From Candidatus Gastranaerophilales bacterium (GTDB lineage: Bacteria > Cyanobacteriota > Vampirovibrionia > Gastranaerophilales > Gastranaerophilaceae), in NCBI GenBank assembly GCA_944322725.1, contig CALUPU010000011.1, positions 1 through 54,095 of the forward strand: a DNA stretch of 54,095 bases. Reading direction: 5' to 3'. Position numbers and translations under genes: made by a program. How positions within the stretch are numbered: position 1 is the first letter of the stretch; each line of letters starts with the position of its first letter. Under the pieces are notes generated by a model. It ran no database searches, was not told the origin of the DNA, and worked only from the letters and a program-made list of their open reading frames with translations. Shown piece by piece: positions 43,063-47,078 of the stretch.

Positions 43063-43091
43063 CAAAAAGTCCGTAAACAATGTTACGGACT
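43063..43091 (-). terminator. Terminator of the three-gene ATPase cassette
   Basis: AGTCCGTAA (43068-43076) and TTACGGACT (43083-43091) form a perfect 9-bp stem. On the minus strand it is followed by TTTTTGC. It lies about 60 bases after the coiled-coil gene and closes the cassette. Confidence 0.85.
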
Positions 43092-43151: not shown

Positions 43152-44249
43152 TTATACATCACACCACTCGGGGTAATATTGTCTGTAGAATTTTTCTACA
43201 TTTTTTAATTCTTCTTTAATTTTTTCTTGTATTTCGGGAATTTCTTCATTATTAATCTTATCAATAAACGCCTTTCTAACATCTTCATTCATGCTTAAGT
43301 TGTTTATTTGCCTTTTTGCATCTTCAATTTTTTGTTCTATTGCAAACATTGCTTCTTCACTTTTTTCAAGAGCTATTTCTACAATTTTAGAAGAAGTCAT
43401 ATTACGCAGACGTTTTACCTGTTCTTGTCTAATTTGATATATTTTTTCTAATTTTTCAACATCTTCTTTTAACTCACCTATCCTAAAATTATTGCTGCCG
43501 TAAATTGAATAACTAGAAAGTTCATATATTTCTTGTTTTTTTGATGTAATCTGCCGGCATATGTCATCCAATTTTTTTAGAACATCATAGCGTCTTTCTG
43601 CCTTTTCCATATTTTTGTCAACACGCTCTGTTTTTTGCTTTGCTTCTTCAATTTCTTTTTCTAATTGAGAAATTCTGTTATTGTATTTTTCTTCAACTTT
43701 AGCGTTTATATTTTCAGGACAGTTTTTTAAAGTTTCTTCATGTCTTTCTTTAAGCAGTTCTATCTCTTTTGTATTTTTGTCTATTATTTCATCTCTTTTT
43801 GCCTGCAATTCCTTGTAATGCTCCATTTCACAGGTTGCATTGCAGGCAAAATTCATGAAACCTTCCATACTATCTTTTTTGATTTGCGACATCCATAGAT
43901 CATTCTTCTGGATATGGGTATGAGTTTTGTATATTTCGGGAGGTATTTCTTCGTAGGGTGAAGCTATGTAAATTCTGGGCATATACCCTTCATCGCTGCT
44001 GTATATATCCCGCTCGCGCGGAGTTAACTCTTCCCATTTTAAACGAACACCCGTATCCTCCAGACGGTCGGGATAGCGGTATTTAACAAACGACTTATGT
44101 AAATAATAGCCGCCATTCATATCAAACTGGGAAGAAAAGTTTTCTAATTCATGTGTATAACCCTTAAATGATTGTTGGGCTGTATGTTTTGTACTGTTCT
44201 TTTTCGGGTAAGAGCAGGACATATTATATCTTATTGCAGAGATTTGCAT
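43152..44249 (-). CDS. Long coiled-coil protein, third gene of the ATPase cassette
   Basis: A 365-residue protein starting at ATG 44249, which has AAGGAGG just ahead; the frame is open to 44300. The N-terminus MQISAIRYNMSCSYPKKN, followed by QQSFKG, matches the N-terminus of the membrane protein at 25.9-26.4 kb. Residues 40-130 are a mixed domain with RLKWEELTPRERDIYS. Residues 145-350 are a long charged coiled coil (KEIELLKERHEETLKN, QLEKEIEEAKQK). It has no signal peptide or membrane segment. It lies 20 bases after the degenerate ATPase gene. Probably a structural or adaptor part of the same complex; function unknown. Confidence 0.65.
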   Translation of the reverse strand: MQISAIRYNMSCSYPKKNSTKHTAQQSFKGYTHELENFSSQFDMNGGYYLHKSFVKYRYPDRLEDTGVRLKWEELTPRERDIYSSDEGYMPRIYIASPYEEIPPEIYKTHTHIQKNDLWMSQIKKDSMEGFMNFACNATCEMEHYKELQAKRDEIIDKNTKEIELLKERHEETLKNCPENINAKVEEKYNNRISQLEKEIEEAKQKTERVDKNMEKAERRYDVLKKLDDICRQITSKKQEIYELSSYSIYGSNNFRIGELKEDVEKLEKIYQIRQEQVKRLRNMTSSKIVEIALEKSEEAMFAIEQKIEDAKRQINNLSMNEDVRKAFIDKINNEEIPEIQEKIKEELKNVEKFYRQYYPEWCDV

Positions 44250-44269
44250 TTTTCCTCCTTTCTGGTTTT

Positions 44270-45808
44270 TTACACGCGATTGAGCTGACCTGACAGACAT
44301 TCTGCAACATGTTGCAGCCAGTGCCCCTTAATGCTGAACTCAAGATCAAATCCTTTTTGATTGAATTCTTCCAGTTCTTTTTTGGTATGTTCAAGTGATT
44401 GATTTAAGCTATTAATTATATCTAAATATTTTTCTTTATTTTTAGGATCATTTTTTATACGTTCTTCAAAGTTCTCTATTATTTTCTGTTTGCCTTCTAT
44501 TGAACCTTCAAGAAATTTTATTGTTCTAGCATAGGATTCCTTATATTGCTCAGGATATTTTTTTTCTATTTTCAGGAATTTTTCATACAGCATGTCTACA
44601 ATTGCCTTGAATTTGGGTGATTCTTTTAACTGTTTGCGTTTTTCTTTAGATGTTGATGTTCCCTCATAATGTGCAAGATCGTCAAGCACATATTGTAAAT
44701 CAATGCTTCTTCTGGCATCACTTACACCTTTTCTTTCAGACGTGTATTCAGTCCAGTCTTTCCATTTTTTAAGCGAATCTTTAAAATCAGGATTTTTGTA
44801 AGAACGCTGGAATTCAAGATGAGGAGCAATTTCTTTCAGCTCTTCTTTTCCGCGTGATGCGAAGAGTTTTTTTGCATGTTTAATTGCTTTTAAAACATAT
44901 TCCTCTCTATTGGTGTCTTTTACATAATCAAGATAATTTTTCCAAACCTCAACAGGTTCGTTGTCATAAGGCATGGGTGTCATCCGCCAGCTTATCCTGC
45001 CGGTGCGTATTGTGGCAGGAGAAAGTCCGCGGGTGCTTTTTGCCGAGAATATTTTTATGAGCCCGAATTTACTTGCTGCGTAATTTGTATCCGGTGAGTC
45101 ATTCAAAAACTCTTCCTCATATTGTAATGGATTGCCCTTAGGATATTTTTTTGATTCTCCCATTTCATCAATATTTCTTACAACAAAAGCTTTAAATTTT
45201 TCGTTTTTCCGGAATTCTTCTCTCGCCTTGTCAGGAGTCATGCCGTTTTTATAAAACATCTTATTCCATGTGTCAAATACATCATCAAAATGAGGATTGG
45301 AGCCGGGTTTAGGGTCAATAATTTCCACTCCGTTTTTTTCCATTTCTTTAACAGCACGTTCAAAAAAGTCTGTTTTCGCTTTTGAATCAGGACCTACAAC
45401 TAAAATTCCGTCACGCGGACAAAATTCCTTTTTGCCGGCTAAGCGTTCTTGAAGCGGTCTGATAAAATATTCGGAAAAAACTCTTTCTTCCCACTGTCTT
45501 ATGTTGTCAGTTTTTATGCCGTTTGTTTTAGGCAGATACATATTTTTGTCCGGTCTAAAGATTCTATTTAAGCGTATTGCCAAATGTTCAATTCTGCTTT
45601 GAACAACCATGAATCTTCTGCCTTTCAAGGCAGCACCTATAGACAACAGTGCAGCAAGACCGCCGCCCACTGCCGCAGCAGTTTTTTGCGTTTTGTTCAT
45701 AGAAACACTGTGCTCATTTCCCTGTAACGGTGATTTTTTAAAGTTTTTGTTAAATTTATTTTTTTGATATGAACTCAGATTGTAAGGTTTAACGTAATTT
45801 ATTTCCAT
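44270..45808 (-). CDS. Degenerate AAA-type ATPase paralogue with N-terminal membrane segment
   Basis: A 512-residue protein. Residues 42-62 (TAAAVGGGLAALLSIGAALKG) form a glycine-rich membrane segment. At 134-146 GILVVGPDSKAKT stands where the neighbouring ATPase has GVILYGPRGRGKS: the lysine-threonine pair remains but two glycines are lost. A Walker-B-like FVVRNIDEM (208-216) corresponds to VIYIEKFDEM in that gene. The C-terminal 200 residues are helical and charged. It is probably a catalytically dead partner of the upstream ATPase, anchoring it to the membrane. AAAGGAG precedes the ATG, and the start overlaps the upstream gene by 20 bp. Confidence 0.65.
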   Translation of the reverse strand: MEINYVKPYNLSSYQKNKFNKNFKKSPLQGNEHSVSMNKTQKTAAAVGGGLAALLSIGAALKGRRFMVVQSRIEHLAIRLNRIFRPDKNMYLPKTNGIKTDNIRQWEERVFSEYFIRPLQERLAGKKEFCPRDGILVVGPDSKAKTDFFERAVKEMEKNGVEIIDPKPGSNPHFDDVFDTWNKMFYKNGMTPDKAREEFRKNEKFKAFVVRNIDEMGESKKYPKGNPLQYEEEFLNDSPDTNYAASKFGLIKIFSAKSTRGLSPATIRTGRISWRMTPMPYDNEPVEVWKNYLDYVKDTNREEYVLKAIKHAKKLFASRGKEELKEIAPHLEFQRSYKNPDFKDSLKKWKDWTEYTSERKGVSDARRSIDLQYVLDDLAHYEGTSTSKEKRKQLKESPKFKAIVDMLYEKFLKIEKKYPEQYKESYARTIKFLEGSIEGKQKIIENFEERIKNDPKNKEKYLDIINSLNQSLEHTKKELEEFNQKGFDLEFSIKGHWLQHVAECLSGQLNRV

Positions 45809-47078
45809 AGAATTTCTCCTTTACTTTACTGATATAATCTGCATCGTCTAGACCCATCAGTTCTTTTCTTTCTTCATCTTTTTTGTTCTGTTTGTCTCCC
45901 ATTTCTTTTTTTGTCTTATATCCTATAATGCCTGCCAGTGCATCCTGCGTTGTGACAGGTGCTTTGTAATTGCCTCTTTTCTTACTGCTGTAATCTTTAA
46001 AAGATAGCTTTTCGTTTACATTTTTTGATATTTCTTCAAATTGGGGCGGGTAGATTGCTATGTCATTGTTTCTCATGTAATTAAGGATTGCATCGTGGTC
46101 AGATTTGTCCAGCCTGTTGTGTTTTGCCCAGAAATAACTCATAACAGCAGACTGCTCTACCTCGGATATTTTTTTTACAGGCATGGTTACATTGCTTATA
46201 TCAGGGTCAAAAAGCCAATCCGGCATAGCTTTTGGAGAGGTAATTGTTCCGACCCATGTAATTCCTTTCTTATTACATTCTTTTGCTGCATTATAAAATT
46301 CCGCACAGAGAATAGGATTTTTATTTTCATTCAGCATTTCGTCAAATTTTTCTATATAAATAACACTTCTGTTTTTTGTTCTTTCGTATTGTTTTTTCGC
46401 ATTTTCAAAGGTGTTTACTATTGCAAGGGCATTTTCCAGAGTATCCCCTTCTTTCCAGGGTCTGTTGATAGTATATATGCCCATAAGGGAATCTCTACTT
46501 TTTTCCTTAAAATGTTCCATCAGGCATTCTGCCATGAAACTTTTACCCCTTCCTCTCGGACCGTATAAAATTACACCGTTTGGAACATCAAATTCACTGG
46601 GGCGATGCTCACTATATTTAGATTCTGCCTGTTGTGCAGAAATTATCGGTGCAACTACATGCTGAATAAGATCAAGTTTTTCTCCGCAATAGCCGATTAC
46701 TTTGTTCAATCCTTCTTCATTGCCGTAGCCGATTGGTTTTATACCGCCGATTTTAAGATATTCATTGTATCTTTCTCTTGCAATAGCAGGAGAAACATGC
46801 AGTTTTTTTGCCAGAAGAGATATATCATCTACAACTTTTTCGTTAGTTGTACTTATTTGTTCACGCTTTTGAGCCTCTCTGCTTTCATTGAGTTTTCTGT
46901 TAAAATAGAAAAACATATCATCAAGCAAAAACCAGCCGAAAGACGGGCTGTAAGATTTTTGCATGCCTGCATTGTTCAGGCAGCCTGTGTTAATTTGCAT
47001 TTTGGACTGATTGTTTTTCGTGCGTGACTGCTGTGTTGAATGCACGTGTTGTGCAGTTTGAATAGACGCTACTCTCAT
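45789..47078 (-). CDS. AAA-family ATPase, first gene of the cassette
   Basis: A 429-residue P-loop ATPase. The N-terminal 55 residues are polar, with MQINTGCLNN and SPSFGW. A helical region (about 55-150) follows, then Walker A GPRGRGKS (173-180), Walker B VIYIEKFDEM (239-248) and a sensor-1-like WVGTITSPK (275-283). A C-terminal lid-like region ends in a Lys-rich tail. The ATPase looks active. It resembles small AAA proteins such as those of the FtsH/ClpX-lid type only in the core motifs; I do not recognise a named family. AAGGAG supports ATG 47078. Confidence 0.7.
   Translation of the reverse strand: MRVASIQTAQHVHSTQQSRTKNNQSKMQINTGCLNNAGMQKSYSPSFGWFLLDDMFFYFNRKLNESREAQKREQISTTNEKVVDDISLLAKKLHVSPAIARERYNEYLKIGGIKPIGYGNEEGLNKVIGYCGEKLDLIQHVVAPIISAQQAESKYSEHRPSEFDVPNGVILYGPRGRGKSFMAECLMEHFKEKSRDSLMGIYTINRPWKEGDTLENALAIVNTFENAKKQYERTKNRSVIYIEKFDEMLNENKNPILCAEFYNAAKECNKKGITWVGTITSPKAMPDWLFDPDISNVTMPVKKISEVEQSAVMSYFWAKHNRLDKSDHDAILNYMRNNDIAIYPPQFEEISKNVNEKLSFKDYSSKKRGNYKAPVTTQDALAGIIGYKTKKEMGDKQNKKDEERKELMGLDDADYISKVKEKFYGNKLR

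What the first reader, a model, noticed from the sequence alone, without database searches (positions are those of the whole stretch)
43152..47078. Three-gene cassette: active AAA-type ATPase, dead membrane-anchored paralogue, and coiled-coil partner
The first two proteins share ATPase core features: GVILYGPRGRGKS against GILVVGPDSKAKT, and VIYIEKFDEM against FVVRNIDEM. One keeps an intact P-loop. The other has lost P-loop glycines and gained a glycine-rich membrane segment. A long coiled-coil protein follows. Starts overlap or lie 20 bases apart and one terminator closes the set, so this is a single operon. A paired active/inactive ATPase with a scaffold suggests a membrane-bound remodelling or transport machine that I cannot match to a named system.
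Basis: partly seen in the sequence, partly recalled or inferred. Interest (0 to 1): 0.8.

Follow-up and report, generated by a model that had tools for sequence, protein, structure and literature searches.

The report
Split AAA ATPase gene cassette
Three adjacent genes in a gut bacterium of the Gastranaerophilales appear to encode a two-part ATP-dependent machine, in which one protein holds ATP and a degenerate, probably membrane-anchored sister protein supplies the residue that senses it; the same split design recurs in many related gene sets with no known function.

Summary
The three genes are real, and they are a conserved cassette. A (AAA ATPase), B (degenerate AAA relative) and C (long helical protein) keep the order A-B-C in four genera of one Gastranaerophilales family. 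B was found in 20 of 288 sampled genomes and C in 16. Profile comparison supports A-B homology (E 1e-6 to 4e-8).

"Active plus dead" needs correction. A keeps its P-loop but lacks the catalytic Walker B glutamate in all 14 copies read. B lost the P-loop but keeps both finger arginines in 13/13 copies. Where B is absent, A's P-loop decays in 3 of 4 copies, against 0 of 10 where B is present.

The design recurs. In 24 of 32 loci with a P-loop-intact relative, a P-loop-dead AAA partner lies nearby. Dead proteins keep the finger arginine in 33/36 cases; P-loop-intact ones in 25/47.

Best reading: a membrane-tethered heteromeric AAA complex with composite ATP sites, working like Torsin-LAP1, probably a switch rather than a fast motor. 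Cellular role unknown. Many of these proteins carry a shared N-terminal SF[KG][GA]-type tag. The window cassette sits at an lptD-accD site and is exchanged between species and repeatedly lost.

The parts
45789..47078 (-). Gene A: AAA protein with intact P-loop and degenerate Walker B
   Evidence: ORF; Pfam AAA 25.4 bits over cut-off 21.2; relatives
46539..46562 (-). A P-loop GPRGRGKS (aa 173-180), GK[ST] in 10/10 copies that have B
46335..46364 (-). A Walker B VIYIEKFDEM (aa 239-248); catalytic Glu replaced (0/14 copies keep it)
46932..46946 (-). A N-terminal tag PSFGW (aa 45-49)
44270..45808 (-). Gene B: P-loop-dead AAA-like protein with an N-terminal glycine-rich hydrophobic segment
   Evidence: ORF; hhalign to the A profile E 1e-6 to 4e-8; 13 orthologues
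45734..45745 (-). B N-terminal tag-like NFKK (aa 22-25)
45626..45682 (-). B glycine-rich hydrophobic segment (aa 43-61), candidate single membrane anchor
   Evidence: hydropathy 1.76
45371..45394 (-). B dead P-loop GPDSKAKT (aa 139-146)
45161..45190 (-). B Walker-B position with Arg211 invariant in 13/13 copies
44996..45010 (-). B arginine-finger motif IRTGR (aa 267-271); both arginines in 13/13 copies (R.GR in 12, R.QR in G181)
43152..44249 (-). Gene C: long helical protein, likely start 44249; conserved RIYIASPxE region and C-terminal FYRxYYPEW
44160..44171 (-). C N-terminal tag SFKG (tag and following residues conserved in most C orthologues)
43068..43091 (-). Intrinsic terminator closing the operon; the same hairpin was found in window, G007 and G008 and beside the relic in G001, but in none of the other lptD-accD gaps tested

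Best explanation
A and B form a heteromeric AAA assembly with composite ATP sites. A binds the nucleotide in its P-loop. B, which cannot bind nucleotide in the usual way, is tethered to the membrane by its N-terminal segment and inserts the arginine finger (R268/R271) into A's site in trans. Because A lacks the catalytic Walker B glutamate, the window's version probably works as an ATP-gated assembly switch or a very slow ATPase, not a processive motor. C is a helical adaptor or substrate bridge on the same complex. The short N-terminal tag found on all three would send them to a common place. Shown: the genes, their order, A-B homology, the complementary loss of motifs, the recurrence of the split design, the tag enrichment, and exchange at one genomic site. 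Inferred: the physical complex, ATP binding without turnover, membrane anchoring, the role of C, and the meaning of the tag.
For: (1) A-B homology by profile comparison, E 1e-6 to 4e-8; in an unbiased sample of the same genome the proteins scoring at comparable levels against the A profile looked like ordinary NTPases, judged by eye. (2) A's P-loop is GK[ST] in 10/10 copies with B; in four B-less copies it reads GKN, GKT, GKD, GKN (B not found there). (3) B has both finger arginines in 13/13 copies, and another Arg at the Walker B position in 13/13. (4) Across AAA-like proteins at the sampled loci the finger arginine is kept in 33/36 P-loop-dead proteins, against 25/47 P-loop-intact ones and 23% of random 7-mers; 15/17 against 8/17 after clustering. 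(5) 24 of 32 loci with an intact A-type also hold a dead partner nearby, including a second three-gene set in the window's own genome at G000:C4, whose ATPase has canonical P-loop and Walker B motifs. (6) Order A-B-C conserved in genera g1, g33, g57 and g50. (7) Torsin-LAP1 is a precedent for a P-loop-less, membrane-tethered AAA protein giving an arginine finger in trans (PMC4358337).
Against: Predicted models are poor (pLDDT 43 and 53) and no complex could be modelled. Several A copies (G008, G084, G105, G154 and others) still carry an Arg near the finger position, so B's finger is not the only one there. A's Walker B loss argues against real ATP turnover. G154, G185, G199 and G206 keep A and C without B; G017 keeps B and C with A destroyed, so the subunits are not strictly interdependent. 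B's hydrophobic segment is weak in some orthologues. The motif counts include related sequences and two dead clusters keep no arginine; the cluster-level test is only P = 0.026. Two of the 'dead' proteins counted (G084, G154) are A-subfamily members and not B-type partners; G084's A in fact has an intact P-loop (GPTGTGKS), so the count is slightly mixed.
Confidence: 0.55

Rival explanations
1. Both A and B are pseudo-enzymes: the cassette is a purely structural or adhesive scaffold that no longer uses ATP, and the motif pattern is leftover ancestry.
For: Catalytic Glu absent in 14/14 A copies; lesions in several copies: internal deletion of A in G017, frameshifts in A and a stop in C in G007; dN/dS 0.2-0.34 for most cassette comparisons against 0.01-0.1 for neighbours.
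Against: A's P-loop glycines and lysine are kept in copies with B, and B's finger arginines are invariant; mere ancestry would not be kept so selectively.
Confidence: 0.22
2. The proteins are exported effectors: the disordered N-terminus ending in the SF[KG][GA] tag is a secretion signal, read for example by the second type III export apparatus that these genomes seem to encode.
For: Tag enriched near A-type ATPases: 13/64 against 1.7+-1.3 shuffled, replicated 19/109 against 2.9+-1.7; every genus member has two FlhB-family genes and at least two FlhA-family matches, and relatives without a flagellin match keep FlhB and FlhA.
Against: No direct link between the tag and any export system; AAA machines with a membrane anchor are unusual cargo; the tag excess is small genome-wide.
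Confidence: 0.1
3. The cassette is an anti-phage or inter-bacterial conflict module.
For: Patchy, exchanged between species, lost often; a sister cassette in the same genome lies by a serine recombinase and a DNA methyltransferase.
Against: No PADLOC family match for A or B, only weak coiled-coil-type matches for C; no nuclease, protease or other killing domain found.
Confidence: 0.15

Closest known systems
Torsin with LAP1/LULL1 (eukaryotic AAA+ ATPase and its membrane-tethered activator; PMC4358337)
   Same: One partner holds ATP; the other has an AAA-like fold without nucleotide motifs, a membrane anchor N-terminal to it, and a conserved arginine at the finger position.
   Different: No sequence link found: the A profile matches p97/Vps4-type AAA, not Torsin. 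A lacks the catalytic Glu that Torsin has; A and B are encoded side by side with a third gene C.
Clamp-loader delta-prime / origin recognition complex subunits (from general knowledge)
   Same: Heteromeric AAA+ assemblies in which subunits that do not hydrolyse ATP lend an arginine finger to a neighbour.
   Different: Those act on DNA clamps and origins; nothing here points to DNA; the cassette proteins carry a tag and a putative membrane anchor.
Vps4 / CdvC and p97 (classical AAA)
   Same: Closest sequence and fold matches of A and its canonical relatives.
   Different: A scores 20 bits against a CdvC cut-off of 650; degenerate Walker B; paired with a dead paralogue.

Membership tests
AAA ATPase family (PF00004) | AAA domain over the curated cut-off (A) | tested here: met
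   25.4 bits against 21.2
AAA ATPase family (PF00004) | Intact P-loop (A) | tested here: met
   GPRGRGKS; GK[ST] in 10/10 copies with B
AAA ATPase family (PF00004) | Walker B catalytic glutamate (A) | tested here: not met
   0 of 14 copies
AAA ATPase family (PF00004) | AAA homology of B | tested here: met
   hhalign E 1e-6 to 4e-8; no Pfam hit on its own; fold search inconclusive
Torsin-LAP1 system | Activator lacks nucleotide motifs but keeps the finger arginine | tested here: met
   B: dead P-loop, both finger arginines 13/13
Torsin-LAP1 system | ATPase lacks its own arginine finger | tested here: inconclusive
   True for the window and G007 A copies; an Arg remains nearby in most others
Torsin-LAP1 system | Membrane anchor N-terminal to the activator domain | tested here: inconclusive
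   B 43-61 hydropathy 1.76, variable in orthologues
Torsin-LAP1 system | Sequence relationship to Torsin or LAP1 | tested here: not met
   A profile: best PDB matches are p97/Cdc48/Vps4, no Torsin among the 60 shown; B profile: no LAP1 match
Vps4/CdvC | Score over the curated CdvC cut-off | tested here: not met
   20.2 bits against 650
Known anti-phage defence systems (PADLOC) | Profile match of A and B | tested here: not met
   0 families for A and B at E 0.01
Heteromeric AAA ring | A and B physically assemble and share ATP sites | not testable with these tools
   No complex prediction or biochemistry available

The most novel reading that the evidence does not exclude
Gastranaerophilales have diversified a whole lineage-specific family of split AAA machines, one ATP-holding subunit plus one or more arginine-finger-only subunits, tagged with a shared N-terminal address that sends them to a dedicated, undescribed compartment or export route (possibly a second type III export apparatus).
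Probability: 0.2. Interest if true: 0.85.

Novelty: new variant of a known kind. Interest (0 to 1): 0.6.

Why it matters
Trans-acting arginine fingers from dead AAA partners are known from a few systems such as Torsin-LAP1, clamp loaders and ORC. Here the same division of labour seems to recur across many gene sets in one uncultured gut lineage, with natural experiments (B lost, A lost) that make the rule testable by sequence. It gives a concrete handle on a large set of unannotated proteins in common gut bacteria and on a candidate new protein address tag.

Tried and rejected
AlphaFold2 on two-sequence alignments gave low-confidence models (pLDDT 43 for A, 53 for B). The fold search on A still found Vps4-type AAA (E 8.5e-5); on B it gave only weak dynein/ORC matches, which I do not count. 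Viral contigs held no cassette relatives: none for P0001 or the B profile, and for the A profile four distant AAA matches that I did not follow. A scan of genome contigs returned only the already known G007 copy. The idea that the SF[KG] tag is common genome-wide was weakened: only 12 of 314 proteins in a sample of the own genome against 6.1 expected, with strong enrichment near A-type ATPases. Testing C for hidden AAA homology was negative. The dN/dS value for A between window and G007 failed because of a frame error in my coordinates and is not used. A first tree run failed on a thread setting and was repeated.

Full report
What is there. On the minus strand of the window lie A (45789-47078, 429 aa), B (44270-45808, 512 aa) and C (43152-44300 as the longest frame, probably 43152-44249), with A and B overlapping by 20 bases and a terminator at 43091-43068. 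The flanks are a gene with weak LptD/OstA similarity upstream and accD-accA downstream (accD and accA are named from their sequence). A scores as an AAA domain; B has no family hit and C only weak matches of the coiled-coil type.

Relationship of A and B. Profile-profile alignment of the A and B families gives E 1.9e-6, 1.1e-6 and 4e-8 in three set-ups, with the P-loop, Walker B and finger regions in register. So B is a degenerate relative of A-type AAA proteins. C shows no such relation.

Motifs. Canonical relatives elsewhere in the genus have a full P-loop and DE in Walker B (FLDEFDG and similar). In the window A reads YIEKFDE. In 14 A copies from five genera the catalytic Glu is never present. 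The P-loop GK[ST] is kept in all 10 copies accompanied by B; in the four genomes of genus g45, where B was not found, it reads GKN, GKT, GKD and GKN. B lost the P-loop but keeps both finger arginines in 13/13 (R.GR in 12, R.QR in G181) and an Arg at the Walker B position in 13/13. The window A itself has no Arg at the finger position (LFDPDISN); other A copies often do (FNPSR, NPLRY). I read this as complementary specialisation, strongest in the window type.

The split design recurs. Around other A-type ATPases in the order, neighbouring proteins match the A profile but have dead P-loops. Of 32 loci with a P-loop-intact protein, 24 also hold a dead one. The finger arginine is present in 33/36 dead and 25/47 intact proteins (Fisher P = 2e-4); counting clusters, 15/17 and 8/17 (P = 0.026); random 7-mers hold an Arg 23% of the time. 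Sequences are related, and the automatic P-loop call is not perfect, so these P values are guides only. The window's own genome has a second three-gene set of this type at G000:C4 (about 109066-112367), with a canonical ATPase and two dead partners, one with a predicted C-terminal membrane segment.

Distribution and history. In 288 genomes of the family, B was found in 20 (12 of them close orthologues by score) and C in 16; ten genomes have both, always adjacent. Order A-B-C was read in genera g1, g33, g57 and g50; g45 has A-C. In a phylum sample of 292 genomes the A-type of this cassette was seen only in this family. Within genus g1 the cassette fills the lptD-accD gap in G000, G007, G008 and G017; in about a dozen others lptD lies directly beside accD. 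G001 keeps a relic: about the last 27 residues of C and the same terminator hairpin. Holders are scattered on an accD-accA tree. Between G008 and G017 most of the cassette block, its intergenic edges included, is 90-97% identical, with divergent stretches in B and one in A, while lptD and most of accD-accA run at about 80-88%; C has dS 0.125 against 1.11 (accD) and 1.6 (lptD). So the cassette is exchanged at a fixed site and often lost. Copies in G007 and G017 carry lesions; these are draft genomes, so some may be assembly errors.

N-terminal tag. A, C and many neighbours of A-type ATPases have an N-terminus rich in Asn, Ser, Lys and Gln (looks disordered; not tested by a disorder predictor) that ends in [SN]F[KGQRH][GAS]; B carries the related NFKK. 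Near such ATPases 13/64 proteins have the tag against 1.7 expected; an independent set of loci gave 19/109 against 2.9, and C-terminal control windows almost none. Its meaning is unknown.

Mechanism. I propose that A holds ATP and membrane-tethered B reads it with an arginine finger, as LAP1 does for Torsin (PMC4358337). Because A lacks the catalytic Glu, I expect an ATP-dependent assembly switch more than a motor. C may bridge the complex to its target. No step of this has been shown by experiment, and the models predicted here are too poor to test it.

Known systems. No Pfam, NCBIfam, PHROGs or PADLOC family describes B or C, and A matches only general AAA models. Searches of the held papers for Gastranaerophilales with AAA ATPases found nothing. 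The kind of machine (AAA assembly with a trans arginine finger) is known; this lineage's version, its tag and its three-gene form are, as far as I could test, undescribed.

Noticed in passing
G000:C9:8365-9390 and C2:35925-36965 (FlhB); C12:32171-34180 and C16:17113-19089 (FlhA): Every genome of the genus has two FlhB-family genes, and nearly all have two full-length FlhA-family genes; relatives with no flagellin match keep FlhB and FlhA. A second, possibly non-flagellar type III export apparatus looks general in Gastranaerophilales. My searches of the held papers found none that describes it.
   Followed up: partly
G000:C3:148256-149308 and similar in most relatives: A shorter protein of about 490 aa matching only the last 350 positions or so of the FlhA family occurs in most genomes.
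   Followed up: no
G000:C4, locus L175 6066-9367: Second three-gene AAA set in the same genome with a canonical ATPase, near a serine recombinase and a DNA methyltransferase.
   Followed up: partly
L061 2572-11988 and L062 1945-11398: Proteins of about 1050 aa with three AAA domains, next to other large tagged proteins (an ankyrin-repeat one in L062) and another AAA-like protein.
   Followed up: no
G001:C10:57971-58051 (locus L077, about 2448-2560): Relic of gene C plus the cassette terminator left between accD and lptD.
   Followed up: yes
L149 7368-9023: A tagged 5'-nucleotidase/metallophosphatase lies one gene away from the FlhB-family gene in G027.
   Followed up: no
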